Below, one piece after another: positions 36,563-58,524 of a stretch of 64,000 bases of DNA. The position numbers were made by a program, and so were the translations under genes. A model generated the notes under the pieces. The model did not search any database. It was not told where the DNA came from and worked only from the letters and a program-made list of their open reading frames with translations. The stretch comes from Nocardioides sp. HDW12B (GTDB lineage Bacteria; Actinomycetota; Actinomycetes; Propionibacteriales; Nocardioidaceae): assembly GCF_011299595.1 (NCBI RefSeq), contig NZ_CP049867.1:744001-808000 (forward strand). The letters are read 5' to 3'. Position 1 is the first letter of the stretch. The number at the start of each line of letters is the position of its first letter.

Positions 36563-38728
<2,166 letters not shown>

Positions 38729-43466: not shown

Positions 43467-44651
43467 GTGAGCCGACCTGTGGACACTCCCGCGCCGCGGG
43501 TGGTGCTGCACGTCGGCGCTCCCAAGAGCGGCACGACGTACCTGCAGCGGGTGCTGTGGCGCAACCGTGACGAGCTGGCCGGGGTGGGGCTGACCTGCCC
43601 CGGCTCCCAGCAGCGGGCGATGTTCGAGGCCGCCGTCGAGGTGCGTGGGGTGGCCGAGCGGTGGGGCATGGACCCCGACGGCATCGCGGGCACCTGGGCC
43701 CGGCTGTGCGCGGAGGCGCGGGCCCACCCCGGCACCACCGTGATGAGCCACGAGGTGCTGGCGGCCGCCTCGGCCGAGCAGGCGGCGACCGCGATGGCCG
43801 AGCTCGAGGGGCTCGAGGTCCACGTCGTCTTCACGGCACGCGAGGTCTCGCGGCAGCTGGTCTCGGAGTGGCAGGAGAACGTCAAGAACGGCAGCGGCCA
43901 GAGCTTCGAGCGCTTCAGCCGCCTGGTGATGAAGGACGCGAGCCGCTCCGAGCACCTGTTCTGGCGCTACCAGAACGTGCTCGGCGTGCTGGACCGCTGG
44001 GGGGCCGGCGTGCCGCCCGAGCGCCTCCACGTGGTCGTGGCGCCGGTCGGGGGCGGCGACGTGACGGTGCTGTGGCGCCGGTTCGCGGAGGCCTGCGGGC
44101 TCGACCCCGACGTGGTGGCGAACCCGGTGGTCTCGCAGTCGGCCAACCAGACGCTCGGCATGACGCAGGTCCGGCTGCTCCGGCGCGTGGTGACGAGCCT
44201 CGACGGACGCCTGCAGCAGCCCGACTACGCCCGGGTGGTCAAGCGGCTCTTCGCCCAGCGGGTCCTGGCCGGCCAGTCCTCGGACCGCCCGACGTGCCCC
44301 CCGGCCCTCTACGACCCCCTGACCGAGCTGTCGCGCAGCTGGATCGGCGGCGTGCGCGAGCGCGGCTACCGAGTCCACGGCGACCTCGACGAGCTGCTGC
44401 CGGTCGCGCCGCCCGCGGACGCCCGGGCCCCGGACGCCGTCCCGGCCGAGGAGGAGATCGCGCTTGCCGCCGACGCGATCGCCGAGCTCCTGCTGGAGGT
44501 CTCCCACCGCCCGCCACCGCGCAAGAAGGCGGAGCGGGCCGACGGTGCAGCTCCCCGGCCGGGCCCGGGCGTGGTGCCGCCGGCCCCGCGCGGGCGCAGC
44601 CTGGTGCGGCGTACGGCGTCGCGCCTGCGCCGTCTCGCCCGCCGCCGCTGA
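43467..44651 (+). CDS. Sulfotransferase family protein 1
   Basis: This 394-residue protein has the PAPS 5'-phosphosulfate loop VVLHVGAPKSGTTYLQRVLW at the start and the 3'-phosphate region VHVVFTAREVSRQLVSEWQE. The rest is a helical P-loop-kinase-like sulfotransferase fold, ending in an Arg/Ala-rich tail (RRTASRLRRLARRR). There is no signal peptide, so it acts in the cytosol or at the inner membrane on an intermediate. The GTG at 43467, with GGAG upstream, follows 10 bases after PLD gene 2. It is one of four diverged paralogues in this region. The acceptor is probably a glycan precursor, inferred from context only. Confidence 0.87.
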   Translation: MSRPVDTPAPRVVLHVGAPKSGTTYLQRVLWRNRDELAGVGLTCPGSQQRAMFEAAVEVRGVAERWGMDPDGIAGTWARLCAEARAHPGTTVMSHEVLAAASAEQAATAMAELEGLEVHVVFTAREVSRQLVSEWQENVKNGSGQSFERFSRLVMKDASRSEHLFWRYQNVLGVLDRWGAGVPPERLHVVVAPVGGGDVTVLWRRFAEACGLDPDVVANPVVSQSANQTLGMTQVRLLRRVVTSLDGRLQQPDYARVVKRLFAQRVLAGQSSDRPTCPPALYDPLTELSRSWIGGVRERGYRVHGDLDELLPVAPPADARAPDAVPAEEEIALAADAIAELLLEVSHRPPPRKKAERADGAAPRPGPGVVPPAPRGRSLVRRTASRLRRLARRR

Positions 44652-44728: not shown

Positions 44729-45907
44729 GTGCTCCGATCCCGCCGCGCCCGCCGCTCCTCGATCTTCCTCCACGTCGGCAGCCCCAAGACCGGGACGACC
44801 TTCCTGCAGAACGTGCTGTGGAAGCAGCGGGCTCTCGCGCTCGAGCAGGGCCTGCTGCTGCCGCAGGAGCGCTTCCACGACCACTACCTGGCGTCCCTGG
44901 ACGTCCGCGGCGTCGCCGGGCGCGAGCACCACCCCGAGCGGGCGGTCGGCATGTGGGACCGCGTGGTCGAGGAGGTCGCGGCCACCAAGCGCGACGTCCT
45001 GGTCTCCCACGAGCTGTTCGCCGCCGCCTCCGCCGACCAGGCGCGTCGCGCCGTCGAGTCGCTGGCCGACGCGGGCGAGGTGCACGTCGTGCTGACGGTG
45101 CGCGACCTGGTCCGGCAGATCACCGCGGAGTGGCAGGAGCACGTCAAGCACCGCTCGACGGTGACGCTGGAGGAGTTCGTCGCCTCGCTGCGCTCCGACA
45201 CAGCGCGGACGTCGTGGTTCTGGCAGGTCCAGGACTTCGCCTCGGTCGTCGAGCGCTGGCGCGCGGACCTGCCCGCCGACCGGGTGCACGTGGTGACGGT
45301 CCCGCCGGCCGGGTCGCCCCCCGGCCTGCTCTGGGACCGCTTCGCCGGGCTGCTCGGGCTCGACCCGGGCTCCTTCGACACCGAGTCCTCCCGCTCCAAC
45401 ACCTCGCTCGGCGCCGAGCAGGCCGAGCTGCTCCGCCGGGTGAACGCCGGGCTGGGCTCGCGCCTGCCGCTGCCGGGTCCCTACCCGGCCGTCGCGAAGG
45501 AGCTGCTCGCCCACCGGCTGCTGGCCGCTCGCAGCGGCGGGCCCCTGCGGCTGACCCCGGAGGACATGGCGTTCGCCGTCGACGAGTCGGCCGCCCAGGC
45601 CGCCCGCCTGGAGGCCGCTGGGGTGCACGTGGTCGGCGACCTCGCCGAGATCGTCCCCGACGCGGGCGTCGTGGGAGCGGCCGCGTCGCCCGACGCCTAC
45701 GCCGCCCCGGACGAGGCCCGGCTGCTCGAGGAGAGCGTGGCCGCCATCCAGGGCCTCCTCGTCGCCCTGGCCGACAAGCGCGCGCAGCGCCGCTACGAGC
45801 AGATGAGCACCGAGCTGCGGGAGGCGCCGGTGCGCTTCGTGGCCAGCAGCTACGTGCGTCGCCACCCGCTCCTGGCGCGCGGCGTGCGCGCCGTGCGCCG
45901 CCGCTAG
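44729..45907 (+). CDS. Sulfotransferase family protein 2
   Basis: This 392-residue paralogue begins with a few Arg residues and then SIFLHVGSPKTGTTFLQNVLW, the PAPS loop, and later VHVVLTVRDLVRQITAEWQEHV for the 3'-phosphate. FYDHYLASLDV-like text is replaced here by FHDHYLASLDVRGVAG. It ends in a basic helix (RHPLLARGVRAVRRR) as in the first copy. The GTG at 44729 lies 6-8 bases after TTAGGGT and is likely leaderless. Homology to the neighbour is clear but distant, so different acceptors are likely. A 155-base gap follows before the EEP gene, holding a GGTTAGCCT promoter-like element. Confidence 0.87.
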   Translation: MLRSRRARRSSIFLHVGSPKTGTTFLQNVLWKQRALALEQGLLLPQERFHDHYLASLDVRGVAGREHHPERAVGMWDRVVEEVAATKRDVLVSHELFAAASADQARRAVESLADAGEVHVVLTVRDLVRQITAEWQEHVKHRSTVTLEEFVASLRSDTARTSWFWQVQDFASVVERWRADLPADRVHVVTVPPAGSPPGLLWDRFAGLLGLDPGSFDTESSRSNTSLGAEQAELLRRVNAGLGSRLPLPGPYPAVAKELLAHRLLAARSGGPLRLTPEDMAFAVDESAAQAARLEAAGVHVVGDLAEIVPDAGVVGAAASPDAYAAPDEARLLEESVAAIQGLLVALADKRAQRRYEQMSTELREAPVRFVASSYVRRHPLLARGVRAVRRR

Positions 45908-46062: not shown

Positions 46063-47046
46063 ATGAGGTCCGACAACCCCCGCCGCTGGGTGCTGCCCGT
46101 GGTCCTGACGGTCGCGACGGTGGCCGCCGCTGCCCTCGTCCTGCCGCCGCTGGCCTCGACCGGGGGCGCGGACGACGACCGGCCGGAGGCCGTGCTCGCC
46201 GCAGCGCCCCACTCCGAGATGCCGTTGCGGGTGGCCACGTTCAACACGGCCGCGACCCTCGGCAGCCGCGCCGCCGCCGAGGACGTCGTCGGCGTGGTCC
46301 GCAAGGGCCGCCCCCACGTGCTCGCGCTGCAGGAGATGGGCAACCCCGACCGCCGCACGTTCGTGCGCCGTGCGCTGGTCGACTGCAAGGGCTGTCCCTA
46401 CCGGGCCTACGTGCCCGGCAGCGCCGTGCCCGCCAGCACCCCGATCCTGTGGCGCGCGCGGCGCCTGGCCCTGGTGCGCGGGTTCAGCCGTCAGGTCACC
46501 GAGGCCACCCGGGTCGGGGCACGGGGCGCGGGGCCCGCGGTGATCAGGGCCAAGTTCGTCAACGGGGTGCACCTGCGCGACCGGCTGACCGGGCGGCACG
46601 TCTACGTGCTCAACAACCACACCGTGCCCACCGTCCAGACCGGCGACGGCAGCCCGAACACGCGTCTGCCCGCGCGGCTGGGCATCTACCGCAAGCACAT
46701 GCAGGGCCTGCAGGAGATCGTGGCGGGGCTCCGGAAGACGGGCGCCGCCGTCCTGGTCGTCGGCGACCTCAACGTCAACTACCGCTCCGACCGGGTGGCG
46801 AAGCCGCGGCTCTTCCCCTACACGCGCCTGGGCGAGGTCGGGATGCGGGCGAGCTTCGAGGCGACCGGGCTGCCGCGGCGGGGGACGCACGTGCTGCGGC
46901 GCAGCGGCAACTCCGTGCGGCTGATCGACTACGTCTACGTCATGCGTCAGCGGGGCTCGGTGCCGCTGGACAACCGCATCATGGGCGGCTTCCGCTCCGA
47001 CCACCGACCCCTCGTGGTGACGCTGCTGATGAAGGCCCGCGACTGA
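46063..47046 (+). CDS. Exported endonuclease/exonuclease/phosphatase protein 2
   Basis: This 327-residue EEP protein has a signal-anchor (WVLPVVLTVATVAAAALVLP) and a short linker to the catalytic domain: LRVATFNTAATLGSRAAAED, HVLALQEMGNPDRRTF, VYVLNNHTVPTVQTGDG, VLVVGDLNVNYRSDRV and GFRSDHRPLVVTLLM. The metal-binding Glu, Asp/Asn and terminal Asp-His are intact. Cys in DCKGCPYRA are close together and could form a disulfide. ATG 46063 has GAGGTG upstream. It is diverged from the EEP protein at 40688-41830, and both share the arrangement with exported PLD-like neighbours. Substrate unknown; a phosphodiester or phosphomonoester is expected. Confidence 0.85.
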   Translation: MRSDNPRRWVLPVVLTVATVAAAALVLPPLASTGGADDDRPEAVLAAAPHSEMPLRVATFNTAATLGSRAAAEDVVGVVRKGRPHVLALQEMGNPDRRTFVRRALVDCKGCPYRAYVPGSAVPASTPILWRARRLALVRGFSRQVTEATRVGARGAGPAVIRAKFVNGVHLRDRLTGRHVYVLNNHTVPTVQTGDGSPNTRLPARLGIYRKHMQGLQEIVAGLRKTGAAVLVVGDLNVNYRSDRVAKPRLFPYTRLGEVGMRASFEATGLPRRGTHVLRRSGNSVRLIDYVYVMRQRGSVPLDNRIMGGFRSDHRPLVVTLLMKARD

Positions 47047-47082: not shown

Positions 47083-48231
47083 ATGCCCGACGCCCGGCCT
47101 GCTCGAGCCGACACCGAGACGATCTACCTGGTCTCCACCAGTGGGTTCCCCAACTACGGCGACGAGGCCAGCACAGCCGCGTGGCTGCGCTTCCTCGCCA
47201 CCGCCCGTCCCGACGCCGACGTCTGGCTGGACTGCAACGACCCCGGCCTGAGCGCCGTGCTCTTCGACGGCTTGAACCCCCGGCTGCGCGTGACCGACAT
47301 GGTCTGGCGGCTGGCGCGCGAGACCGCCGAGATGACAGCCGAGGAGGGCGACCGCCACGTCGACGTCCGCCTGCGCGACTTGGGCAGCCCCCGCTTCGAT
47401 CTCGGGCTCCTCGCCCTGCGCGAGGCCTCGACCTACCACGTGGTCGGCGGTGGCTACGTCAACGACCTGTGGCCCCACCACCTGCAGCTGCTCCGCGCCG
47501 GGCTCCGGCTCAAGGAGCTGAGCGGGGCCCGCCTGGTGGCCACGGGCATCGGGCTCACCCCGTTGACGCGACCGGACGAGCTGAAGGAGGTCTTCGCCGC
47601 CTTCGACCACGCCACGGCGCGCGACGCGCCGAGCGCCGAGGCCGCCGGCATCGCTCTCAGCAGCGACGACTCGCTGCTCGGCCTCGACCAGGTGACCGGC
47701 TTCAAGCGGGGCGGTCACACCGGGGGAGGAGCACGCGGCGACGTGTGGGTCTGCCTCCAGAGCGACCGCATCTCCGGCGAGGACCTCGAGACCGCCGTCG
47801 CGGCGGTCCGCGAGCTGCTCGCCGGCCCGCGCTTCGCGGGACGCACGGTCCGCTACCTCGAGGCCATCCCCGGGGTGGACCGGATCGCCTTCGACAAGCT
47901 CGCGGACCTGATCCCCGAGGAGAACTTCGTCCCGTTCGTCGACCTGTGGCGCAACGGCTTCCCGGGCGGGCAGGACCAGACCTGGGTGACCTCGCGCTTC
48001 CACCTGCACCTGCTGGCCGCTGCCACCGGCGCCGAGGGCGTCGTGGTCGAGCCCGACGAGCAGTACTACCGGCCGCTGCACGCCTCGTTGCTGGAGGCCG
48101 GCACGGGGTGGGCGGTGTCGCCCGCGAGCAGCCCGAGCCTGCCCGAGCCCTCGGTCTCGGCGCGGTTCCGCGGCGTCGCCGCCGCCGCCCACGAGGCCAA
48201 GCGGGCCGAGGCGGGCGCGCTCTACTCCTGA
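47083..48231 (+). CDS. Polysaccharide pyruvyltransferase family protein
   Basis: This 382-residue cytosolic protein resembles WcaK/CsaB-type transferases, which put a pyruvate ketal on sugar residues using phosphoenolpyruvate. The start TIYLVSTSGFPNYGDEASTAAWLR gives the GNxGD-like loop (here NYGDE). YHVVGGGYVNDLWPHHLQL is the conserved GGG strand. VCLQSDRISGEDLE and the region TSRFHLHLLAAATGAEGVVV holds the SxRxHxxxxA motif. The ATG at 47083 follows TAGGGTGACCCA. The last codons are at the beginning of a 9-bp tandem repeat, and the gene overlaps the convergent LicD-methyltransferase gene by 10 bases. Confidence 0.85.
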   Translation: MPDARPARADTETIYLVSTSGFPNYGDEASTAAWLRFLATARPDADVWLDCNDPGLSAVLFDGLNPRLRVTDMVWRLARETAEMTAEEGDRHVDVRLRDLGSPRFDLGLLALREASTYHVVGGGYVNDLWPHHLQLLRAGLRLKELSGARLVATGIGLTPLTRPDELKEVFAAFDHATARDAPSAEAAGIALSSDDSLLGLDQVTGFKRGGHTGGGARGDVWVCLQSDRISGEDLETAVAAVRELLAGPRFAGRTVRYLEAIPGVDRIAFDKLADLIPEENFVPFVDLWRNGFPGGQDQTWVTSRFHLHLLAAATGAEGVVVEPDEQYYRPLHASLLEAGTGWAVSPASSPSLPEPSVSARFRGVAAAAHEAKRAEAGALYS

Positions 48232-49892
48232 GGCTCCTGAGGCTCCTGAGGCTCCTGAGGCTCCTGAGGCTCCTGCTGCCTGCCGGGGCCGCGCTTCGCG
48301 CCGCCCCGCTTCGGCGGCGCCGGCTGCCAGGTCGCGACGATGCGGCACACGTAGGGGTCCTCGGTCTCCCGCACGGCGAGCCCGGTGCCCTGCTCCTTGT
48401 GCAGCACGCGGCCGCCGGCCCGCTCGATCTGGCGCACCACCGTGCGTGGGCGCAGGTAGCGGCGGTTGTGGTTGCCGAACAGCTTGGGCCGGTGCCGGTC
48501 CTCCGGGGTGCGGAACTCCAGGAAGAGCAGCCCGCCCCGGCGCAACGACATCGAGGCGAGCCGCATCACGTTGATGCGGCCCCAGAAGTCGAGGGCGTGC
48601 AGGGTGAAGCGGGCGTAGACGTCCGGGGTCTCCTCCATGCGGCTGATCTCGGCGCCGAAGGCCAGCACCGCCCGGGTGTCGTAGAGGTTGAGCGTGCGGA
48701 ACGACGCGTCCAGCCCCTCGCGCTTGGAGTGGTTGTTTGCGCGCAGCACGGGGGAGAAGCCGTAGTCGACACCCGTCACGGTGCGCGTCCGACCGCCCTG
48801 GCCCTCGCCCGAGGCGAAGTAGTGCGCGTCGCGCCCGGTGCCGCACCCGACGTCGATCAGCGGCCGGTCGGTCGGGTAGGTCGCCGCCACCCACTCGGCG
48901 AACGGCGACGGGGTCCGCAGGTGGCGCTGCGGGTAGCTGTTGTAGAAGACGTCCCAGTGCTTGCGGTGGGTCTTGAGGCCGCCGAACCAGCCGCCGAGCC
49001 GCCGTGACAGCCACTGCGGGGTCTCGTACTTGAACGAGGGGTCGGGGACCCGCCAGCTCTCGCCGTACGTCGCCGCCAGCAGCTCCTCGGACCGGGCCGG
49101 GGCCGGCAGCATGCGGCCCATGAGCTCGACCGGGCGCAGCGGGAGGATGGTCTCGACCGGCAGCCGGAAGCCGGTGTCGGAGGGCATGTAGAGCACGCCC
49201 TCGACCCAGTGGGCGGTGAAGACGTCGACGTAGCGCGTGCTGCCGTCCTGCATGAGCAGGCGGACGTTGAGCCGGACGCCGGAGCCGCGCCGGACCGTCC
49301 AGCCCGCCTCGCGCAGGGCGCGCTCGACGCGGAAGCCCTCCCGCACGACGTCGACGGGGAAGGGCTCCTGGCTGACGTAGGCGAGGTCGACGTCGTTGTC
49401 GTGGCCGATGAGCCGGCCGTTGCGCACGGCGCCGAGCAGGGTGCCGTAGCTGATGAAGGCGGGCACGCCCGCCACGGTCTCCAGGTCCTCGATGAGACGC
49501 TCCACGGCGTCCATGAGCTCGTCGATGTCGGAGCCCGCCTCGGCGCTCAGCGGGCGGATCAGCCGGCCCCACTTGTCGAGGGTGAGGGGCTGGCCCTTCT
49601 TGTCGGTGATGCTGACCTCGCGGTCGGTCTCGCCGGCGAACACGTGGTGGGTCGAGGCGACCTCGTCGCCGGAGACGTGCGAGCGCACCAGCACGTCGGC
49701 GTGACCGCGCAGCAGCCGCCGCAGCGCCTTCGGCCAGGGGGCGTTCAGCCGACCGTCGCGGCGCTCCATGTCGCGGGAGGGCTGGAACGACCAGGCGTGC
49801 AGGCCGTTGAGCACGACGTCGTACGTCGCCTCCGGGTCCAGCTCGGCGTCGACGCCCAGCGTCTCGTCGTCGACGACCAGGGAGGCGCTCAT
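48222..49892 (-). CDS. LicD-type transferase fused to SAM methyltransferase
   Basis: This 556-residue protein has three parts. Residues 1-115 are unrecognised. A LicD/FKRP-type nucleotidyl-phosphate transferase spans about 125-285, with FISYGTLLGAVRNGRLIGHD followed by the metal DND at 165-167 and Asp169. A class I SAM methyltransferase spans about 315-510, with DVFYNSYP and motif I LIDVGCGTGRDAHYF. LicD proteins transfer phosphocholine, phosphoglycerol or phosphoribitol from CDP donors to glycans. The methyltransferase might modify the same acceptor or substituent. It is coupled through ATGA to the upstream sulfotransferase gene. The C-terminus is a Lys/Arg stretch and QEP repeats. Confidence 0.86.
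   Translation of the reverse strand: MSASLVVDDETLGVDAELDPEATYDVVLNGLHAWSFQPSRDMERRDGRLNAPWPKALRRLLRGHADVLVRSHVSGDEVASTHHVFAGETDREVSITDKKGQPLTLDKWGRLIRPLSAEAGSDIDELMDAVERLIEDLETVAGVPAFISYGTLLGAVRNGRLIGHDNDVDLAYVSQEPFPVDVVREGFRVERALREAGWTVRRGSGVRLNVRLLMQDGSTRYVDVFTAHWVEGVLYMPSDTGFRLPVETILPLRPVELMGRMLPAPARSEELLAATYGESWRVPDPSFKYETPQWLSRRLGGWFGGLKTHRKHWDVFYNSYPQRHLRTPSPFAEWVAATYPTDRPLIDVGCGTGRDAHYFASGEGQGGRTRTVTGVDYGFSPVLRANNHSKREGLDASFRTLNLYDTRAVLAFGAEISRMEETPDVYARFTLHALDFWGRINVMRLASMSLRRGGLLFLEFRTPEDRHRPKLFGNHNRRYLRPRTVVRQIERAGGRVLHKEQGTGLAVRETEDPYVCRIVATWQPAPPKRGGAKRGPGRQQEPQEPQEPQEPQEPQE
48225..48275. repeat. 9-bp minisatellite (CTCCTGAGG) in a convergent overlap
   Basis: Five perfect CTCCTGAGG units (48225-48269) plus a partial unit lie across the ends of two convergent genes. 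On the plus strand each unit carries an in-frame TGA, so the pyruvyltransferase always ends at the first. On the minus strand the units encode the C-terminal QEP repeats of the LicD-methyltransferase protein. Changes in copy number would alter only the latter. Confidence 0.92.
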
Positions 49893-51004
49893 CGACGCCC
49901 CCGACCCGCGAAGCGGTGGCGGGCGCGCGACACGAGCCCGGCGGCACGACGGGGGACCGACCGTGCCCCGGCCCGGCGCCGTAGCCGCTGCTGGGCCAGC
50001 GTGAGCCGGCGGACGTCGCGGATCATGCGCTCCATGGCCACCGCGGCCACCTCCACGAGCTCGGCGTCGCTGACCTCCGAGGGGCGGGCCAGGTCCGGCT
50101 CGTCCGCCGGCTGGAGGTCGTCGAGGTCGCCGGCGAGAGGGTAGCCACCGTCCCGGACGGCCGCCACGGCCGCCGCCGAGGCCTCGGCCAGGGCCGCGCG
50201 GTGGTCCTCGCGCAGCCCGAGGCGCGGCCCACGCTGGGGCACGAGCACGTCGTGGGCGAAGTAGCCCCGCACCCAGCGGTGGCGCTCGGGACCCTTGCGC
50301 AGCGGTCCCGTGAGGTGGGGCTTGACCCGCTGCAGCAGCGCCGCCTGGGGGGCGCCGAGCGACTCGTTGGGGTGCGCGGTCTCCATGTCGAAGCCGGTGG
50401 TGTCGAGGCCGAGGACCTGGGTCCACCGGTCCCAGAGCAGGTTGCGCGCTGCCCCGGGCGGCGGCACGGTAATGACGTGGAGCCGGTGCGGGGGCACCGC
50501 CTGGCTCCACTCGGCGAGCACCGTCGGGACGTCCTGCGAGCGCCAGCCCCACGCGCCCCGCACCCGGCGGGCCAGCACCTCGTCCATGTAGTCGTCGACG
50601 CTGAGGTCGGAGTTCATCTTCAGCGCCTCCTGCCACACCGCCGGGAACTGGCGGACGTAGTCGCGCAGCACCACGACGACGTGCACCTCGCCCTCGAGCG
50701 AGGCGACCAGGTCCTGCGCCTGCGCGCCGGTCGTCATGCTGAGGAACTCGTGGCTGAGCAGGCCGTCACCGGAGAAGCCGTTCAGCTCGCGGCGCAGCTC
50801 GTCCCAGGTGTCCGCGTGCGGGCCGAGGGCCTCGCGCGAGGTGCCGCGGATGGCCTGGCTGGCGTGGTAGTGGTCCATGCGCTTGGAACCGGGGTAGAGG
50901 AAGCCGCGGGACCGCAGCAGCCCCCGGTTCTGCCACATGGTGGTCTGCAGGAAGGTCGACCCCGCCTTGGGCAGACCGACGTGGACGAAGACCCGCCGAG
51001 CCAT
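49889..51004 (-). CDS. Sulfotransferase family protein 3
   Basis: This 371-residue paralogue begins MARRVFVHVGLPKAGSTFLQ with the PAPS loop GLPKAGST (Ser in place of the usual second Thr), and has VHVVVVLRDYVRQFPAVWQE for the 3'-phosphate. It ends with the same type of basic tail (RRRAGARSVPRRAAGLVSRA). The ATG at 51004 has GGGGAAG upstream. The stop overlaps the LicD-methyltransferase start by 4 bases, so sulfation and the LicD step are encoded together. The acceptor is unknown. Confidence 0.87.
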   Translation of the reverse strand: MARRVFVHVGLPKAGSTFLQTTMWQNRGLLRSRGFLYPGSKRMDHYHASQAIRGTSREALGPHADTWDELRRELNGFSGDGLLSHEFLSMTTGAQAQDLVASLEGEVHVVVVLRDYVRQFPAVWQEALKMNSDLSVDDYMDEVLARRVRGAWGWRSQDVPTVLAEWSQAVPPHRLHVITVPPPGAARNLLWDRWTQVLGLDTTGFDMETAHPNESLGAPQAALLQRVKPHLTGPLRKGPERHRWVRGYFAHDVLVPQRGPRLGLREDHRAALAEASAAAVAAVRDGGYPLAGDLDDLQPADEPDLARPSEVSDAELVEVAAVAMERMIRDVRRLTLAQQRLRRRAGARSVPRRAAGLVSRARHRFAGRGRR

Positions 51005-51063
51005 TGCTTCCCCTTCACTGGTTTCCGTCGTTGCGCCGTGGTGCACGACCGGACTGGTGCTGC

Positions 51064-51330
51064 TCAGAGCGCGTCGGAGTACTTCTTCAGCACCGCGTCG
51101 ACGCGCTCCTGGTCACGCTGTGACAGCGGCAGCAGCAGCTCCTGCACGACGTCGGTGACCTCGGCCAGCCGGCGGTTCAGCCGACGGGCCTCCTGCATCT
51201 CCTTCTCGAGCTCGGCCACCCGACGGCGCAGGTCGTCGACGCGCGCCTCGCTCACGGGCAGGGCCTTGCGGCGGAAGGCGACGAGGCGTCGTCGGGTGCG
51301 TCCTGGCCTGGCCTGCGCCCGGTTCGTCAT
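51064..51330 (-). CDS. Small coiled-coil protein
   Basis: The 88-residue product is basic at the start (RAQARPGRTRRRLVAFRRKA) and then forms a heptad coiled coil: VDDLRRRVAELEKEMQEARR and LNRRLAEVTDVVQELLLPLS. It ends QERVDAVLKKYSDAL. It may correspond to a Nocardioidaceae DUF6752-like family (a recollection, not certain). It lies 59 bases upstream of sulfotransferase 3 on the same strand, so co-expression is likely. A scaffold or membrane-peripheral role next to the glycan enzymes is only a suggestion. Confidence 0.7.
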   Translation of the reverse strand: MTNRAQARPGRTRRRLVAFRRKALPVSEARVDDLRRRVAELEKEMQEARRLNRRLAEVTDVVQELLLPLSQRDQERVDAVLKKYSDAL

Positions 51331-51492
51331 CTGGTGTTCACCTGTCGGTCGAGGGGAGCCATACGGTAACGCGTCACGGGCCTGCGATCCGGGGCGCGGC
51401 ACGCACGATAGCCTCATCGGACCCAACGCCCCGGCGACCGCCGGGGGTGCCGGGCCCTCGTGGGTCCCAGGGTCCGAGGGAAGGACACGCAC

Positions 51493-52227
51493 GTGATCGG
51501 GATGGTGCTGGCTGCCGGGGCCGGGCGGCGACTGCGCCCCTACACGGACACGCTGCCCAAGGCGCTGGTGCCGGTGGACGGCGAGACCACCATCTTGGAC
51601 ATCGCCCTGCGCAACCTCGCGGCGGTCGAGCTCACCGACGTCGTGGTCGTGGTGGGCTACGCCGCGGGCGCGGTCGAGGAGCGGCGCACCGCGCTGGAGC
51701 GCCGCCACGGGGTGTCGCTCACGCTGGTGCACAACGACAAGGCCGAGATCTGGAACAACGCCTACTCGCTGTGGACCGCGCGCGACCACCTGCACGAGGG
51801 CGCGCTGCTCGTCAACGGCGACACCGTGCACCCGGTCTCGGTCGAGGAGACCCTGCTGGGCTCCCGTGGACCGGACATCCTGCTGGCCATCGACGCCGAG
51901 AAGCGGCTGGCCGACGAGGAGATGAAGATCCAGGTCGACGACCAGCGGCACCTGACGCGGATCACCAAGCTCATGGACCCCGCGACCGCGTTCGGCGAGT
52001 ACATCGGCGCCACCCTCATCGAGCCGGCTGCGGCCGTGCCGCTGGCCGACGCGCTGCAGACCACCTTCGAGCGGGACCCCGACCTCTACTACGAGGACGG
52101 CTACCAGGAGCTGGTCGCGCGTGGCGCCCACATCGGCATCGCGCCGATCCCGGCCGGGACCTCCTGGGTCGAGGTCGACGACCACCGCGACCTGGAGAAG
52201 GCTCGGGAGATCGCGTGCCGGTACTAG
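51493..52227 (+). CDS. LicC-like nucleotidyltransferase (CDP-activating)
   Basis: The 244-residue protein activates a phosphorylated small molecule with a nucleotide. The signature MIGMVLAAGAGRRLRPYTDT and LPKALVPVDGETTILD are those of sugar/alcohol nucleotidyltransferases. LVHNDKAEIWNNAYSLWTARD matches the YNDK...NN(I/A)YS pattern of LicC phosphocholine cytidylyltransferases, more than hexose-1-phosphate enzymes. LLVNGDTVHP holds the metal Asp. GTG 51493 has AAGGA upstream. It overlaps the dehydrogenase gene by 13 bases. With that enzyme, CDP-glycerol or another CDP-polyol is a likely product, but choline-phosphate cannot be ruled out. Confidence 0.86.
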   Translation: MIGMVLAAGAGRRLRPYTDTLPKALVPVDGETTILDIALRNLAAVELTDVVVVVGYAAGAVEERRTALERRHGVSLTLVHNDKAEIWNNAYSLWTARDHLHEGALLVNGDTVHPVSVEETLLGSRGPDILLAIDAEKRLADEEMKIQVDDQRHLTRITKLMDPATAFGEYIGATLIEPAAAVPLADALQTTFERDPDLYYEDGYQELVARGAHIGIAPIPAGTSWVEVDDHRDLEKAREIACRY

Positions 52228-53279
52228 CCCGGATGCTGGCGAGCCCCCTGTTCGTCGACATCCGCCGGGGGGCCGTCGAGGACCTCTCGACCCTGCTGCA
52301 CGAGCGCTACGTCTCGAGCACGGGTCGGGTCCTCATCGCGGTGGGACGCACGCAGGGCGCCGACATCTGGCGCCGGATCAGCAGCTCGCTGCCGGAGGCG
52401 ACCGTCTTCGAGGTGCCCGACGCGAGCCTCGCCGCGGCCGGCGCGCTGCAGGAGGAGCTCGGCAAGCAGGGGTACGACGCGGTCGTCGCCATCGGCGGCG
52501 GTCGCACCCTCGACGTCGCGAAGTACGCCGCCACGCGGGCCGCGCTGCCGATGGTGGCCGTGGCCACCAACCTGGCCCACGACGGCATCTGCTCACCCGT
52601 GGCCTCGCTGGAGCACCCGCACGGCAAGGGCTCCTACGGGGTGGCCCTGCCCCTGGCGGTCGTCGTCGACCTCGACTTCGTGCGGGCCGCCCCGCGTCAC
52701 CTCGTGAGCGCCGGCGTCGGCGACGTCGTGAGCAACCTGTCCGCGATCGAGGACTGGCTGCTGGCGCACCGCACCCAGGGCGAGCCGGTCGACGGGCTCG
52801 CGATGGCCTTCGCCCGCACGGCCGGCGAGGCCGTCCTGCGCCGGCCCGACTCCATCGAGGACGACGCCTTCCTGGTCGCGCTCGCCGAGGCCCTGGTGCT
52901 GTCGGGGATGGCGATGTCGGTGGCGGGCACCTCGCGACCGTGCAGCGGGGCGTGCCACGAGATCGTGCACGCCGTCGACCAGCTGTTCCCGGGCAAGTCC
53001 AACCACGGCGAGCTCGCCGGCGTGGGTGCGCTCTTCGCGACGTCGCTGCGCGGTGACACCGCGCTGCTCGGCGAGATGGCCCAGTGCCTGCACCGCCACG
53101 GGCTGGCCACGGACCCGGCCGGGCTGGGCCTGACGACCGACGAGTTCGTCCGCGCGGTGCTGCACGCGCCGACGACGCGGCCGGACCGCTACACGGTGCT
53201 CGAGGAGCGCGACCTGGACGAGGCCGGCGTGCACCGCGAGGTCGAGACGTTCACGACGGCGGTCGCGGCCGTCCTCTGA
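52215..53279 (+). CDS. Glycerol-1-phosphate dehydrogenase-like enzyme
   Basis: This 354-residue protein is of the iron-containing/EgsA-AraM dehydrogenase family. The nucleotide segment VVAIGGGRTLDVAKYAATRA and PMVAVATNLAHDGICSPVASL are hallmarks of sn-glycerol-1-phosphate dehydrogenases (compare PTxxSHDGIxSPxASI). Metal ligands appear as the Asp in AGVGDVVSNLSAIEDW and the His residues in CSGACHEIVHAVD and KSNHGELAGVG. The GTG at 52215 with GGGAG upstream lies within the end of the LicC-like gene. This pairing of a polyol-phosphate dehydrogenase with a cytidylyltransferase resembles TarJ/TarI for CDP-ribitol. It is likely to provide glycerol-1-phosphate or a similar polyol phosphate. Confidence 0.87.
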   Translation: MPVLARMLASPLFVDIRRGAVEDLSTLLHERYVSSTGRVLIAVGRTQGADIWRRISSSLPEATVFEVPDASLAAAGALQEELGKQGYDAVVAIGGGRTLDVAKYAATRAALPMVAVATNLAHDGICSPVASLEHPHGKGSYGVALPLAVVVDLDFVRAAPRHLVSAGVGDVVSNLSAIEDWLLAHRTQGEPVDGLAMAFARTAGEAVLRRPDSIEDDAFLVALAEALVLSGMAMSVAGTSRPCSGACHEIVHAVDQLFPGKSNHGELAGVGALFATSLRGDTALLGEMAQCLHRHGLATDPAGLGLTTDEFVRAVLHAPTTRPDRYTVLEERDLDEAGVHREVETFTTAVAAVL

Positions 53280-53326: not shown

Positions 53327-54667
53327 TCAGGCCGTGGCCCCGTCCTCGACGTCCTCGTCGGGCAGCTGCTTGTGGTGCGAGATCTCCACGCACTGCTGCA
53401 CCAGGTCGACCAGCTCGTCGACGGCGGCCTGGAGCGGGTCGGGCCGGTGGGACCAGTGGTCGGCAGGGGTCACGGCCTCGAAGGGAAGGCGCGGCAGCCG
53501 CAGGATCTGGGGCTCGGTCACCTCCCCGGCGGACGGACGCCGGTCGGGCAGGCCCGCGCTGAGCTGTGCGCGCAGGGTCAGCAGCCCGTCGCGGGCGTGC
53601 ACGGCGGCGGCCAGGACGTCCTTCGGCGCCGCCTGCGGGAGCTTGGCCCGGACGTCCTTGCCGGGACGCTGCACGACGAGGTCGTCGAGCGAGCCGACGA
53701 CGTCGACACCGTGGCGACGCACCGCGCGGCGGATGCGACGGTTCCAGCGCACGCCGAGGAGGTGGCCGCGTCGGTGCATGCGGATGGGCTGCTCGACCTC
53801 GGCCCGCGAGCCGAGGATGCGTCGCGCGAGCGGTCCCTTCACCAGGAGCGTGTAGTCGGTGGGGGAGAGGTCGAGCTGCTTGTTGACCAGCCGCATGAGC
53901 TCGGTCGAGGCGTGGCCGAGCGAGCTGTTCGAGGTGTCCTCGGGCTGCTCGCACACGTCCGGGTCGACCCCGACGACGGACGCGAACCGCTGCCACAGCA
54001 GGGCCGGGTCGGAGCCGCGCGGGGGCACCGTCACCACGTGGACGCGCTCGGCGCCGACGAGGGGAACCCACACGTCGAGCATCCGCTCGATGTCCTGGGT
54101 CCGGCGGAAGAGCCGCACCGGCTTGCTGACCGGCCCCGCCCGCTCCGGTCCGTCCGCCAGCGCGATCGCGTCGCGCACGCCGTACACGAAGCGCCGGTAG
54201 GGAACGTGGGCGCCGTTGCGGCAGCTGGTCTGCCACTGCGCCGGGATGGTGGAGATGGTGTCGCGCACGGTGAGGATGATCTCGACGTCGGCGTGCGCCA
54301 GCGAGTCGAGGATCCGCTGGGCCTGCTCGGTGTCGGCGAAGCTGAGGAACTCCATCGAGAAGATTGACGCCTTCTTGCCGCGGCCCCGGTGGGCGAGCAT
54401 CTCGGCCACGATCCGGTCCCACCGGCCCTCGACGGCGGCCTTGCGGCGGGGGTCCTGGACGGAGAAGCCGAGCACGTCGGCCGCCGCGCGGCTCTGGTCG
54501 GTCCACCGCTCCCCGGGGAACAGGTAGCCGGCCTCGGCCAGCCGCTCCTTGTTCGCCGAGAGCAGCCCCTGGAGGTAGGTGGTCCCGGTCTTCATGGCGC
54601 CGATGTGGAGGAAGATCCTCGGTCTCCTGCGCAGGCGGACGTCCCAGTCCCGCCGAAGGGGCAACAT
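53327..54667 (-). CDS. Sulfotransferase family protein 4
   Basis: This 446-residue copy is the longest of the four. It starts with a basic stretch, then RIFLHIGAMKTGTTYLQGLL, in which the PAPS loop reads GAMKTGTT. VEIILTVRDTISTIPAQWQT is the 3'-phosphate region. A C-terminal extension of about 60 residues holds a helix with AAVDELVDLVQQCVEISHH. ATG 54667 is divergent from glfT2, 92 bases away. The 3' end contains two GGATCAGGCC copies just before and in the last codons. It is convergent with the dehydrogenase gene. Cytosolic sulfation of a glycan or lipid-linked precursor is a likely role. Confidence 0.86.
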   Translation of the reverse strand: MLPLRRDWDVRLRRRPRIFLHIGAMKTGTTYLQGLLSANKERLAEAGYLFPGERWTDQSRAAADVLGFSVQDPRRKAAVEGRWDRIVAEMLAHRGRGKKASIFSMEFLSFADTEQAQRILDSLAHADVEIILTVRDTISTIPAQWQTSCRNGAHVPYRRFVYGVRDAIALADGPERAGPVSKPVRLFRRTQDIERMLDVWVPLVGAERVHVVTVPPRGSDPALLWQRFASVVGVDPDVCEQPEDTSNSSLGHASTELMRLVNKQLDLSPTDYTLLVKGPLARRILGSRAEVEQPIRMHRRGHLLGVRWNRRIRRAVRRHGVDVVGSLDDLVVQRPGKDVRAKLPQAAPKDVLAAAVHARDGLLTLRAQLSAGLPDRRPSAGEVTEPQILRLPRLPFEAVTPADHWSHRPDPLQAAVDELVDLVQQCVEISHHKQLPDEDVEDGATA

Positions 54668-54759: not shown

Positions 54760-56832
54760 GTGAGTGACGCGACCCCGTCCCCCGTCTCTGCCGACCGCGA
54801 GAGCGAGGGGTTCCGAGTCGTCCAGCGGACGCTGATGCGCGCCGACCAGGAGCTCGACGTCCGGTCGCTCTACCTGGCCGGGGTGTCCGGCTTCAGCGGC
54901 GGCGGAGGTCCGTCGCGCCAGTCCGGCGCCGGCCACGACGAGGGCGGCGAGACGCAGGAGTCGACCTCCTCGGAGACCGACAAGATCATGGGCCACGGCC
55001 GGGTGACCGACGACGGGCACACCATCGTCGAGGCCGAGCACCGGCTGACGTTCGGCACCTACTTCAACGCGTTCCCCGCCAGCTACTGGCGCCGGTGGAC
55101 CGACTTCGAGGCGGTCACGCTGCGCATCCGCGCCCGCGGCGACGGCAACGTGATCGTCTACCGCTCCACCTCCAAGGGACACGTGGTGCGGGCCAGCTCC
55201 GCCGCCGTGGACTCCGAGCAGAGCACCGACATCGAGCTGGTCCTGCCGCTCAAGCCGTTCATCGACGGCGGGTGGTACTGGTTCGACGTCGAGGCGGGCG
55301 ACCGCGAGATCGTCATCGAGTCGGCGGTCTGGGGCTTCCCGACCGACCGCACGGTCTCCAGCACGGTGACGATCGGCATCACGACCTTCAACCGGCCCGA
55401 CTTCTGCGTGGACCAGCTGCTGAACCTCGGGCAGGACGCGGCCGTGCTGGAGATCCTCGACGAGGTCGTCGTGGTCGACCAGGGCACGCAGAAGGTCGTG
55501 CACAACGAGCACTTCGAGCGGGCCGCCGAGGCGCTGGGCGCCAAGCTCCGCGTCATCGAGCAGCCCAACCTCGGTGGCTCGGGCGGCTTCTCCCGCGCCA
55601 TGAGCGAGGGAGTCTCCCGCGGCGACTCCGACTACGTCCTGCTCCTCGACGACGACGTCGTCTGCGAGCTCGAGGGCATCCTGCGGGCGGTGGCGCTGGC
55701 CGACCTGGCCAAGCAGACGGTCCTCGTCGGAGGTCAGATGTTCAGCCTCTACGACCGCTCGGTGATGCACGCCTACGGCGAGGCCATCGGCACCTGGCGC
55801 TGGTTCTGGGGCCCGGCCCCGGCGACGCTCCACGGCCACGACTTCGCACGCAAGTCGCTGCGCTCCACGAGCTGGCTGCACCGCCGGATCGACGTGGACT
55901 ACAACGGTTGGTGGATGTGCCTCATCCCCACCAAGGTCATCCGCGAGATCGGCCTGTCGCTGCCGATGTTCATCAAGTGGGACGACGCCGAGTTCGGCCT
56001 GCGGGCGCGCGCTGCCGGCTACCCCACGGTGACGATGCCCGGTGTGGCCGTCTGGCACGTCCCGTGGACCGAGAAGGACGACACGCTCGACTGGCAGGCC
56101 TACTTCCACGAGCGCAACCGCCTCGTCTCCGGCCTCCTCCACTCGCCGTACGAGCGCGGTGGGCGGCTCGCCGTCGAGAGCCTGGAGAACCACGTCAAGA
56201 GGCTCATGTCGATGCAGTACAGCACCGGCGAGACCATCCTCATGGCGCTCTCGGACGTCCTCGAGGGCCCCGAGCGCATGCACCGCGACATGTCGTTCCG
56301 GCTCAAGGAGCTCCGCACCCTGCGCGAGCAGTACTCCGACGGCCGCTCCTCGGCCGACCTCGACGACTTCCCGGCCCCGCGGCTGAAGAAGCCGCCGAGG
56401 CGCGGTCGCGGCGTCCCGAACCCCAGCGACACCGTCGGCAAGGTCAAGATGGCCGTCACCGGTCTCGTGCGGCAGGTCCGACCGACCCGCCCGCTGGCCC
56501 AGGAGCACCCCGAGGGGATCGTGCCCCACGTCGACCAGCGCTGGTACCGCCTCGCGCACTTCGACTCGGCCATCGTCTCGACCGCGGACGGCGTCGCGGC
56601 GTCGTGGTACCGCCGTGACACCGCGGAGTTCCGGGCGCAGCTGGCCCGGTCGACCGCCCTGCACAAGCGGCTCTACCAGGAGTGGCCCGAGCTGGCGCGT
56701 CGCTACCGCGAGGCCCTGCCCGAGCTCACCTCGCCCGAGAAGTGGAAGCTCACCTTCGAGGGCCTCGACGACGACGAGTTCGACGCCGGGCTCCCGAGCG
56801 GACCGGCCGCGGAGGGCACCGTCCGCCCGTGA
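54760..56832 (+). CDS. glfT2: Galactofuranosyltransferase (GlfT2-like)
   Basis: This 690-residue enzyme matches the GlfT2 polymerase that builds the alternating beta-1,5/1,6 galactofuranan. It has an N-terminal beta-sandwich (about 80-195) followed by a GT-A domain: VTIGITTFNRPDFCVDQLLN, NLGGSGGFSRAMSEGV, YVLLLDDDVV (D297-D299) and FIKWDDAEFGLRARAAGYP (D408, D409). VAVWHVPW supplies the catalytic His433. A C-terminal helical domain follows. It is longer than the mycobacterial 637 by a Gly/Ser linker near 45-75. The GTG at 54760 has GAGGAAA upstream. It is coupled (GTGA) to the exporter permease. Confidence 0.94.
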   Translation: MSDATPSPVSADRESEGFRVVQRTLMRADQELDVRSLYLAGVSGFSGGGGPSRQSGAGHDEGGETQESTSSETDKIMGHGRVTDDGHTIVEAEHRLTFGTYFNAFPASYWRRWTDFEAVTLRIRARGDGNVIVYRSTSKGHVVRASSAAVDSEQSTDIELVLPLKPFIDGGWYWFDVEAGDREIVIESAVWGFPTDRTVSSTVTIGITTFNRPDFCVDQLLNLGQDAAVLEILDEVVVVDQGTQKVVHNEHFERAAEALGAKLRVIEQPNLGGSGGFSRAMSEGVSRGDSDYVLLLDDDVVCELEGILRAVALADLAKQTVLVGGQMFSLYDRSVMHAYGEAIGTWRWFWGPAPATLHGHDFARKSLRSTSWLHRRIDVDYNGWWMCLIPTKVIREIGLSLPMFIKWDDAEFGLRARAAGYPTVTMPGVAVWHVPWTEKDDTLDWQAYFHERNRLVSGLLHSPYERGGRLAVESLENHVKRLMSMQYSTGETILMALSDVLEGPERMHRDMSFRLKELRTLREQYSDGRSSADLDDFPAPRLKKPPRRGRGVPNPSDTVGKVKMAVTGLVRQVRPTRPLAQEHPEGIVPHVDQRWYRLAHFDSAIVSTADGVAASWYRRDTAEFRAQLARSTALHKRLYQEWPELARRYREALPELTSPEKWKLTFEGLDDDEFDAGLPSGPAAEGTVRP

Positions 56833-57735: not shown

Positions 57736-58524
57736 ATGACCCAGTCGATCGTCGTCGAGAACGTCTCCAAGCAGTTCACGCTCCGCTTCCACCGCACCCT
57801 CAAGCAGGTCACGGTCGCAATGGCCCGCGGCCAGGACGTTAGCAACCGCTTCCTGGCCCTGGACGACGTGAGCTTCACCGTCGAGCAGGGGGAGTCCATC
57901 GGCCTCATGGGCCTCAACGGGTCCGGCAAGTCCACGCTGCTCAAGATCATCAACGGCGTGATGCGCCCCGACTCGGGCTCGGTGCGCACGCGCGGGCGTG
58001 TAGCCGGACTGATCGCCACCGGTGCCGGCTTCCACCCGCAGCTGACCGGGCGCGAGAACATCTACCTCAACGCCGCCATCCTCGGGATGACGGAGGCCGA
58101 GACCAAGGCCAAGTTCGACGACATCATCGACTTCGCCGACATCGGACGCCACCTCGACACCCCCGTCGGCCACTACTCCTCGGGACAGTTCTCGCGGCTC
58201 GGGTTCGCCGTCGCCGTGCACACCGAGTCGGACATCTTCCTGGTCGACGAGGTGCTCGCGGTGGGGGACAAGCCCTTCAAGAAGAAGTGCATCGCCCGCA
58301 TGGAGGAGATCAAGAAGGAGGGGCGGACGCTGTTCTACGTCAGCCACTCCGCGCCCTCGGTCAAGCGGATGTGCGACCGCGTGCTGGTCCTGGAGAAGGG
58401 CGTGCTCGGCTACGACGGGCCCACCAAGGAGGGCATCCGCTACCTCAAGTACGACAACGACCCGGACGACGTGAACTCCGAGGAGGAGAACGACGACGAC
58501 GCCGAGTACGGCGCCGACATCTGA
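57736..58524 (+). CDS. wzt: Polysaccharide ABC exporter ATPase (Wzt-like)
   Basis: This 262-residue ATPase pairs with the Wzm-like permease. Motifs are Walker A GLNGSGKSTLLK, VAGLIATGAGFHPQLTGRENIYLN (Q-loop and the family's FHPxLTGREN), the slightly variant signature YSSGQFSRLGFAVAVH, and Walker B SDIFLVDEVLAVGD. The H-loop is VSHSAPSVKRMC. No C-terminal carbohydrate-binding domain is present; instead a short acidic tail (DVNSEEENDDDAEYGADI) follows, as in galactan- and teichoic-type exporters without Wzt-C. The last base is at 58524, before an AT-rich promoter region. Confidence 0.94.
   Translation: MTQSIVVENVSKQFTLRFHRTLKQVTVAMARGQDVSNRFLALDDVSFTVEQGESIGLMGLNGSGKSTLLKIINGVMRPDSGSVRTRGRVAGLIATGAGFHPQLTGRENIYLNAAILGMTEAETKAKFDDIIDFADIGRHLDTPVGHYSSGQFSRLGFAVAVHTESDIFLVDEVLAVGDKPFKKKCIARMEEIKKEGRTLFYVSHSAPSVKRMCDRVLVLEKGVLGYDGPTKEGIRYLKYDNDPDDVNSEEENDDDAEYGADI

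What the first reader, a model, noticed from the sequence alone, without database searches (positions are those of the whole stretch)
48222..53279. Candidate CDP-polyol phosphate decoration module
A LicC-like cytidylyltransferase and a glycerol-1-phosphate-dehydrogenase-like enzyme are translationally overlapped (13 bases). Nearby is a LicD-domain transferase fused to a methyltransferase. LicC, TarI/TarJ and LicD/FKRP families work in pathways that make CDP-choline or CDP-polyol and transfer the phospho group to a glycan. Their placement inside a galactofuranan locus suggests an undescribed phosphodiester substituent (for example sn-glycerol-1-phosphate) on the actinobacterial wall galactan.
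Basis: partly seen in the sequence, partly recalled or inferred. Interest (0 to 1): 0.7.

Follow-up and report, generated by a model that had tools for sequence, protein, structure and literature searches.

The report
Predicted CDP-1-glycerol module in galactan locus
A pair of coupled genes found in many actinobacteria is predicted to make an activated form of the "archaeal-handed" glycerol phosphate, and in this organism it sits in a wall-galactan gene cluster beside a transferase that resembles a human muscular-dystrophy enzyme, which would mean such bacteria decorate their walls by a route that a recent paper judged likely absent from bacteria.

Summary
48222-53279 holds a LicD-methyltransferase fusion, a sulfotransferase-like gene, a DUF6752 gene, and a LicC-like cytidylyltransferase overlapping a glycerol-1-phosphate-dehydrogenase-like gene by 13 bases, inside a galactofuranan locus. 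In 394 genomes of the class the cytidylyltransferase occurs in 100 and the dehydrogenase in 100; 99 have both, adjacent in 98. The pair is a unit, but not galactan-specific: 7 of the 100 have GlfT2. In 80 named loci (best of 582 or more) a CDP-alcohol phosphotransferase motif is present in 74 of 74 outside Nocardioidaceae and LicD in none; in Nocardioidaceae the counts are 0 and 5 of 6. Two unrelated transferase families that share a CDP-alcohol donor thus alternate beside one pair. One contig carries LicD-ST-DUF6752-pair without galactan genes nearby. Best reading: DHAP to sn-glycerol-1-phosphate to CDP-1-glycerol, then phosphoglycerol transfer by an FKRP-like domain. Reactions and acceptor are inferred. 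Exceptions exist: ten Kribbella-like loci have neither transferase motif, and most family LicD-methyltransferase genes lack the pair. Glycerophospho-galactofuranan is known in Bifidobacterium; a bacterial CDP-1-glycerol route was not found in my searches.

The parts
48222..49892 (-). LicD/FKRP-like phosphotransferase domain (about residues 119-290) fused to a SAM methyltransferase domain (about 330-525); C-terminal tail of QEP repeats
   Evidence: PF04991 over cut-off; 23 of 23 members of A5 (window plus 22 of the 45 related stretches found) match LicD at E <= 0.01; the A5 profile hits FKRP in the PDB sequences, E 5.7e-11, next hit 0.07; methyltransferase fold by Foldseek, best E 6e-10
49889..51004 (-). 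Sulfotransferase-like protein (ST3), 4-base overlap with the LicD gene
   Evidence: No Pfam or NCBIfam hit; AlphaFold2 mean pLDDT 89.9; the one structure with E <= 1e-3 is sulfotransferase 3rnl, E 1.5e-5, TM 0.41/0.58; beside LicD in 9 of 9 family loci that have LicD and the pair
51064..51330 (-). 88-aa DUF6752 protein
   Evidence: PF20537 81.4 bits; its counterpart in L111 86.6 bits
51493..52227 (+). LicC-like nucleotidyltransferase, predicted CTP:sn-glycerol-1-phosphate cytidylyltransferase
   Evidence: NTP_transferase 45.6 bits; best PDB sequence hit LicC 1jyk, E 1e-11, then PntC-type 6pd1; GTG start read from the sequence and relatives
52215..53279 (+). G1PDH (EgsA/AraM)-like dehydrogenase, 13-base overlap with the cytidylyltransferase
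   Evidence: G1PDH model PRK00843 247.5 bits (cut-off 413) vs 51.8 for glycerol dehydrogenase; best PDB sequence hits G1PDH 5fb3 E 5.5e-41, then 3ce9 (deposited as glycerol dehydrogenase) 1.8e-40 and G1PDH 4rfl 4.5e-39; overlap recurs
54760..56832 (+). GlfT2-like galactofuranosyltransferase (context: likely maker of the acceptor)
   Evidence: PF19320 156 bits, PF17994 114 bits
56829..58524 (+). Wzm (56829-57734) and Wzt (57736-58524) ABC exporter (context)
   Evidence: ABC2_membrane and ABC_tran over cut-off; galactan_ABC_perm 47.7 bits, below its 380 cut-off
37529..38728 (+). UDP-galactopyranose mutase (context)
   Evidence: GLF 272 bits
47083..48231 (+). Polysaccharide pyruvyl transferase-like, accessory
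   Evidence: PF04230 50.3 bits; matched in L032, L033 and L114, not in L042, L110, L136, L140
34129..35607 (+). LCP-family protein, likely ligation of a polymer to peptidoglycan (context)
   Evidence: PF03816 75.1 bits

Best explanation
The overlapping pair makes CDP-1-glycerol: the G1PDH-like enzyme reduces dihydroxyacetone phosphate to sn-glycerol-1-phosphate, and the LicC-like enzyme activates it with CTP. The LicD (FKRP-like) domain transfers phospho-sn-1-glycerol to a hydroxyl of the cytoplasmic galactofuranan made by GlfT2, as a phosphodiester side group or end cap. The fused methyltransferase methylates the glycerol or a nearby sugar. The chain is exported by Wzm/Wzt and attached to peptidoglycan by an LCP protein. 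The pair itself is a general actinobacterial wall-polymer donor module; outside Nocardioidaceae its usual partner in the loci seen is a membrane CDP-alcohol phosphotransferase, in Nocardioidaceae it is LicD-methyltransferase. Shown here: gene families, overlap, co-occurrence, alternation of partner, conserved motif residues. Inferred: every reaction, the polyol, the acceptor, the role of the methyltransferase.
For: Unit: cytidylyltransferase in 100 and dehydrogenase in 100 of 394 class genomes, 99 shared, within 1.5 kb in 98; the two single genomes have the found gene at the start of a contig. Dehydrogenase within 400 bases downstream of LicC on the same strand in 80 of 80 named loci. CDP-alcohol phosphotransferase motif in 74 of 74 named loci outside Nocardioidaceae and LicD motif in 0; in 6 Nocardioidaceae loci 0 and 5; in 4 own-family genome loci 0 and 4; in 5 Actinopolymorpha-like loci 5 and 0. 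LicD-ST-DUF6752-LicC-G1PDH away from galactan genes in L111. LicD-methyltransferases from pair-bearing loci cluster on a 46-row tree: 2 label changes against 7.5 in shuffles, 0 of 500 as low. LicD profile hits FKRP at E 5.7e-11, with DxDxD and a further Asp invariant in 23 rows. FKTN uses CDP-1-glycerol in vitro and FKRP uses mixed CDP-glycerol (PMC8587909, passages). G1PDH model over glycerol dehydrogenase model by 247.5 to 51.8 bits. No PcrB match in 4 of 4 pair-bearing family genomes.
Against: The G1PDH score misses the curated cut-off (247.5 of 413) and the second-best solved relative is deposited as a glycerol dehydrogenase. 4 of 30 order genomes with the cytidylyltransferase have no close dehydrogenase. 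Ten of ten Kribbella-like loci have neither transferase motif within about 10 kb, nor has L115. 52 of 56 own-family genomes with a LicD-methyltransferase match (some partial) lack the pair, and 85 of 92 GlfT2 genomes of the class lack it, so neither galactan nor this LicD needs it. FKTN works better with CDP-ribitol than with either CDP-glycerol. The AlphaFold2 model is weak exactly at the LicD motif and the 50 listed Foldseek hits are of methyltransferase fold, so structure did not confirm the LicD domain.
Confidence: 0.55

Rival explanations
1. The pair makes CDP-1-glycerol (or another CDP-polyol) not for the galactan chain but for a linkage unit or a second wall polymer; its place in the galactan locus reflects shared export and ligation genes.
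For: 93 of 100 class genomes with the cytidylyltransferase have no GlfT2 match. Among the 80 named loci, LCP genes are clustered in 55, ABC ATPase in 29, ABC permease in 24, an IspD-SDR fusion in 18 and a CDP-glycerol glycerophosphotransferase-like family in 15. A synteny study places araM, a nucleotidyltransferase, a CDP-alcohol phosphotransferase and tagGH together in Streptomyces (PMC13118837, one passage).
Against: In seven family loci (window, L033, L042, L110, L114, L136, L140) the pair is 0.1 to 2.7 kb from GlfT2, though closeness does not prove the acceptor.
Confidence: 0.25
2. The dehydrogenase makes another polyol phosphate, so the donor is a CDP-polyol other than CDP-1-glycerol.
For: Score below the curated G1PDH cut-off; 7 of 12 aligned pair-borne dehydrogenases have Glu where the window has the presumed metal-ligand Asp (ligand recalled).
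Against: Two of the three best solved relatives are G1PDHs; 18 of 80 named loci also hold a separate IspD-SDR fusion that would suit CDP-ribitol (function inferred).
Confidence: 0.15
3. Archaeal-type ether lipid: the glycerol-1-phosphate feeds a prenyl-glycerol lipid, as suggested for actinobacterial G1PDH.
For: Coleman et al. 2019 report all three archaeal lipid genes in some Streptomyces and allow for archaeal-like lipids there (PMC6431249, passages).
Against: No PcrB match in 4 of 4 pair-bearing family genomes (Streptomyces not tested by me); dehydrogenase gene overlaps a cytidylyltransferase gene in many loci.
Confidence: 0.03
4. Phosphonate or phosphocholine decoration: the LicC-like enzyme activates 2-aminoethylphosphonate or choline phosphate.
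For: Closest solved sequences are LicC and a PntC-type enzyme; LicD is the classical phosphocholine transferase (recalled).
Against: Neither of the genome's two PF13714 matches (one over the cut-off) has the EDKxxxxxNS phosphonate-mutase motif (motif recalled); the neighbour in 80 of 80 named loci is a dehydrogenase. Choline genes were not searched.
Confidence: 0.04

Closest known systems
FKTN/FKRP ribitol-phosphate transferases of dystroglycan (LicD family)
   Same: LicD-type motif; CDP-alcohol donor; FKTN accepts CDP-1-glycerol in vitro (PMC8587909, passages)
   Different: Bacterial, fused to a methyltransferase, predicted acceptor galactofuranan; FKTN prefers CDP-ribitol
Wall teichoic acid donor enzymes TagD (CDP-3-glycerol) and TarI/TarJ (CDP-ribitol) (recalled)
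   Same: Cytoplasmic CDP-polyol for a wall polymer exported by an ABC transporter
   Different: Other protein families; opposite glycerol phosphate enantiomer predicted
Streptomyces tagGH-araM-nucleotidyltransferase-CDP-alcohol phosphotransferase syntenic region (PMC13118837)
   Same: Looks like the same pair with an exporter; linked there to teichoic acid biosynthesis (one passage)
   Different: CDP-alcohol phosphotransferase instead of LicD; no galactan genes named; the passage proposes no reaction
Phospho-glycero-beta-galactofuranan of Bifidobacterium bifidum (PMC10700415, PMC12355684)
   Same: Glycerol phosphate on a galactofuranan of an actinobacterium (passages)
   Different: B. bifidum has an LtaS homologue (PMC12286996, passage), so its group may come from phosphatidylglycerol (inference); its genome was not searched here
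B. subtilis AraM / archaeal EgsA (G1PDH)
   Same: Dehydrogenase family
   Different: Here coupled to a cytidylyltransferase; no PcrB in the four genomes tested
WbdD-type kinase-methyltransferase caps of ABC-exported O antigens (recalled)
   Same: Phosphoryl plus methyl modification in one protein beside Wzm/Wzt
   Different: LicD phosphotransferase instead of a kinase; the 262-aa Wzt seems too short for a cap-binding domain (recalled)

Membership tests
LicD/FKRP family | Pfam LicD over gathering score | tested here: met
   29.6 vs 22.6 bits; 23 of 23 members of A5 match at E <= 0.01
LicD/FKRP family | DxDxD motif and a further Asp, aligned to FKRP | tested here: met
   D47, D49, D51, D105 of A5 invariant in 23 rows; aligned to FKRP; their metal role is recalled
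LicD/FKRP family | Fold of the catalytic domain | tested here: inconclusive
   pLDDT under 50 at residues 149-166; listed Foldseek hits cover the methyltransferase
LicD/FKRP family | Transfer of a phospho-alcohol from a CDP donor | not testable with these tools
   needs an enzyme assay
G1PDH (EgsA/AraM) | Closest family by sequence | tested here: met
   247.5 vs 51.8 bits; 5fb3 best, 3ce9 (named glycerol dehydrogenase) second, 4rfl third
G1PDH (EgsA/AraM) | NCBIfam PRK00843 equivalog cut-off (413 bits) | tested here: not met
   247.5 bits; hence G1PDH-like, not filed as a member
G1PDH (EgsA/AraM) | Metal-binding Asp and two His (recalled) | tested here: met
   Asp in GVGDVVSN, His in GACHEIVHA and SNHGE of the window; Glu replaces the Asp in 7 of 12 aligned sequences
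LicC (phosphocholine cytidylyltransferase) | Nucleotidyltransferase family and similarity to LicC | tested here: met
   PF00483 and 1jyk over residues 3-102
LicC (phosphocholine cytidylyltransferase) | Choline phosphate as substrate, lic operon | not tested
   LicA/LicB not searched; neighbour is a dehydrogenase; not filed as LicC
TarI/TarJ | IspD-type cytidylyltransferase plus its usual reductase | tested here: not met
   NTP_transferase plus Fe-ADH instead
Sulfotransferase (ST3) | Sulfotransferase fold | tested here: met
   3rnl E 1.5e-5, the one hit with E <= 1e-3, TM 0.41/0.58; next hits are other P-loop proteins and sulfotransferases at E 4e-3 or worse
Sulfotransferase (ST3) | Pfam or NCBIfam sulfotransferase model | tested here: not met
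   no hit for ST3; paralogue ST2 reaches 16.8 of 27 bits

The most novel reading that the evidence does not exclude
Actinobacteria possess a dedicated CDP-1-glycerol pathway, so glycerol phosphate of the archaeal hand is a building block of bacterial wall glycans, and most actinobacterial 'archaeal' G1PDH genes of this kind serve this and not lipids. The pathway is served by interchangeable transferases: a CDP-alcohol phosphotransferase in most lineages seen and an FKRP-like LicD-methyltransferase in Nocardioidaceae galactan loci, where it may set a methylated phosphoglycerol side group or chain-ending cap.
Probability: 0.5. Interest if true: 0.75.

Novelty: new variant of a known kind. Interest (0 to 1): 0.6.

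Why it matters
A 2021 paper argues that CDP-1-glycerol is likely absent from bacteria and that glycerol-1-phosphate in the surface molecules it lists appears to come from other donors (PMC8262930, passages). Evolutionary work uses bacterial G1PDH, that of Actinobacteria included, in arguments about archaeal-like lipids and the lipid divide (PMC6431249, PMC5059525, passages). If the module makes CDP-1-glycerol for wall polymers, both views need revision for about a quarter of the sampled class (100 of 394 genomes), and the question becomes testable with two soluble enzymes and a 31P NMR spectrum.

Tried and rejected
Galactan-specific module: rejected by the class survey. Ether lipid: no PcrB match in the four family genomes. 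Phosphonate: the two PF13714 matches look by eye like a lyase and PanB and lack the mutase motif. A hidden orthologue of the CDP-alcohol phosphotransferase in the pair-bearing family genomes: 18 PF01066 matches in 4 genomes; against samples of the D2 and D23 partners the best local identity is 39% over 59 residues and the best E 7e-9; a sample of a third, longer family (D9) reaches 47% over 60 residues; no evident orthologue, but not a full test. TarI/TarJ membership: rejected on families. Structure of LicD-methyltransferase: mean pLDDT 65.9 from 5 sequences, no help for the LicD part. Paper searches without a direct hit. My GC-based gene caller put some LicC starts too far upstream and in L136 called a gene on the strand opposite to the expected DUF6752 gene; positions used for counts come from tblastn. 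PMC13400652 and PMC11666461 (passages) and PMC12892944 (passages) hold, in the passages seen, nothing on this module; the last names teichoic acid genes beside tagGH in a Streptomyces, which I did not match to the pair.
Full report
What is there. The window is bases 744001-808000 of a genome of 4,192,138 bases in one contig. The nearest named relatives for this unit are Nocardioides and other Nocardioidaceae, so I take it as Nocardioidaceae. The stretch runs from the stop of the LicD-methyltransferase gene (48222) to the stop of the dehydrogenase gene (53279). Between lie a sulfotransferase-like gene (49889-51004, 4-base overlap with LicD), a DUF6752 gene (51064-51330) and the LicC-like gene (51493-52227). 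Around it are UDP-galactopyranose mutase, GlfT2, Wzm/Wzt, an LCP protein, two glycosyltransferases, three more sulfotransferase-like genes, PLD-like and Exo_endo_phos proteins and a pyruvyl transferase-like gene.

The overlap. The 13-base overlap depends on a GTG start at 52215; an ATG lies at 52233. Of 16 junctions read, 10 have ATG or GTG at the 13-base position with closely similar N-termini, 3 share one base and 3 do not overlap. Of 80 named loci 49 have an in-frame start giving exactly 13 bases, 2 another overlap and 29 none found, 10 of these without any start in my scan range. Coupling is common, not universal.

Enzyme families. The dehydrogenase matches the G1PDH model better than glycerol dehydrogenase (247.5 vs 51.8 bits) but misses the curated cut-off of 413; its best solved relatives are G1PDH 5fb3 (E 5.5e-41), 3ce9, deposited as glycerol dehydrogenase (1.8e-40), and G1PDH 4rfl (4.5e-39). 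I call it G1PDH-like. The cytidylyltransferase is closest to LicC 1jyk (E 1e-11) and then to a PntC-type enzyme. The LicD domain passes Pfam's cut-off on its motif. A profile of 23 sequences (the window and 22 of the 45 related stretches found) finds FKRP among the PDB sequences at E 5.7e-11; the next hit has 0.07. The DxDxD and a further Asp are invariant, and 23 of 23 members match LicD. The structure model was poor at that motif; the 50 listed Foldseek hits are methyltransferases or, as I recall for a few, proteins of that fold, so only the second domain was confirmed. The ST3 model is good (pLDDT 89.9); its one hit with E <= 1e-3 is a sulfotransferase, with TM 0.41/0.58. APS kinase matches in 4 of 4 pair-bearing family genomes, so PAPS may be available.

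Is the pair a unit? In 394 class genomes the cytidylyltransferase is in 100 (E <= 1e-30) and the dehydrogenase in 100 (E <= 1e-40). 99 have both; in 98 they are within 1.5 kb; the other (G270) has them 11 kb apart on one contig, with dehydrogenase fragments elsewhere. G287 and G275, with one gene each, have it at the start of a contig. In the order survey of 196 genomes, 26 had a dehydrogenase of 50% identity or more, all among the 30 with the cytidylyltransferase (E <= 1e-20); 4 had the cytidylyltransferase alone.

Is it tied to galactan? No. GlfT2 matches in 92 of 394 class genomes, 91 over the cut-off. Seven have both GlfT2 and the cytidylyltransferase; in G417 and G536 they lie on different contigs and in G516 2 Mb apart. 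In the order survey GlfT2 is in 68 of 196 and the cytidylyltransferase in 30; 4 have both, all in the own family. There the pair lies in the galactan locus in the window, L033 and L042, and in L032 the contig ends before GlfT2. Of six named Nocardioidaceae loci four have GlfT2 by the pair (L110, L114, L136, L140). L111 has LicD-ST-DUF6752-LicC-G1PDH flanked by unrelated genes on a 15 kb stretch, and L115 has the pair alone.

Alternation of transferase. In 80 named loci a CDP-alcohol phosphotransferase (PF01066 for representatives) of cluster D2 or D23 is present in 74. Two families that share a CDP-alcohol donor alternate beside the same pair. I take this as the best evidence that the pair makes a CDP-alcohol and that LicD uses it here. 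The 80 loci are the nearest to the query, not an even sample.

Against. LicD-methyltransferase is a larger family: 79 of 196 order genomes have a match, some to the methyltransferase alone; 56 of these are of the own family and 52 of the 56 lack the pair. LicD there must use another donor or do something else. On a tree of 46 rows from the loci at hand, labelled by locus, the 8 rows from pair-bearing loci need 2 label changes, against 7.5 in shuffles, 0 of 500 as low; 7 group together (support 92/59) and that of G061 stands apart (L114 left out). So the association is inherited in part. The Kribbella-like loci, L115 and the 4 genomes without dehydrogenase do not fit one fixed pathway.

Mechanism. 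DHAP to sn-glycerol-1-phosphate to CDP-1-glycerol, then transfer by LicD. That a LicD-family enzyme can use CDP-1-glycerol is shown for FKTN, which prefers CDP-ribitol; FKRP was shown with mixed CDP-glycerol (PMC8587909, passages). The acceptor is most likely the galactan because GlfT2 lies 0.1 to 2.7 kb from the pair in seven family loci; position, frequency and the target of the methyl group are unknown. A cap like that of WbdD (recalled) is possible, but the 262-aa Wzt seems short for cap recognition.

What is known. PMC8262930 (passages) judges CDP-1-glycerol likely absent in bacteria. PMC13118837 (one passage) lists a Streptomyces region with araM, tagGH, a nucleotidyltransferase, a CDP-alcohol phosphotransferase and a glycosyltransferase in connection with teichoic acids; it proposes no reaction there, but the gene association itself is thus in print. 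PMC6431249 (passages) discusses actinobacterial G1PDH in terms of archaeal-like lipids; PMC5059525 (passages) has actinobacterial sequences in its G1PDH tree. PMC10700415 and PMC12355684 (passages) report phospho-glycero-beta-galactofuranan in Bifidobacterium bifidum, which has an LtaS homologue (PMC12286996, passages). My searches (in one search I saw 20 of 30 papers listed) found no bacterial CDP-1-glycerol route and no LicD version of the module. They cover open-licence PubMed Central only; structural work on actinobacterial wall polymers is, as I recall, mostly outside it.

On rechecking I added the 3ce9 hit, FKTN's preference for CDP-ribitol, the breakdown of the 29 non-overlapping loci, the 47% D9 match and the nucleotidyltransferase named in PMC13118837.

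Noticed in passing
window 43479-44651, 44729-45907, 49889-51004, 53327-54667: Four sulfotransferase-like genes in one galactan locus; with APS kinase in the genome this suggests a sulfated galactan.
   Followed up: partly
L123:2783-3553 and 61 other members of cluster D2: The CDP-alcohol phosphotransferase beside the pair seems to have His in place of the fourth Asp of the usual motif (recalled): 0 of 62 match with Asp, 60 of 62 when His is allowed.
   Followed up: no
L098, L100, L101 (G060, G084, G102) and G117: Four order genomes have the cytidylyltransferase without a close dehydrogenase; in L100 and L101 a methyltransferase-like gene (by eye) follows it on the other strand.
   Followed up: no
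L114:700-15400: In Nocardioides sp. TF02-7 several genes of the locus (LicD, dehydrogenase, GlfT2 and others) appear split by frameshifts, possibly assembly errors.
   Followed up: no
L047:7363-12397: Three LicD-methyltransferase genes in tandem without the pair in the 20 kb stretch.
   Followed up: no
window 38862-40289, 42116-43456, 40688-41830, 46063-47046: Two PLD-like and two Exo_endo_phos proteins whose N-termini look like export signals by eye; phosphodiesterases acting on a decorated polymer would fit.
   Followed up: no
window 48222-48275: The LicD-methyltransferase ends in a run of QEP repeats, absent from the four relatives aligned.
   Followed up: no
G000:C1:3175487-3176620: A second LicD-methyltransferase-like gene in the own genome, 34% identical, with a sulfotransferase-like match about 1.2 kb away (L051).
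   Followed up: partly
L137:5685-7097 and 17 relatives (cluster D16): IspD-SDR fusion in 18 of the 80 named loci, perhaps a CDP-ribitol route beside the pair.
   Followed up: no
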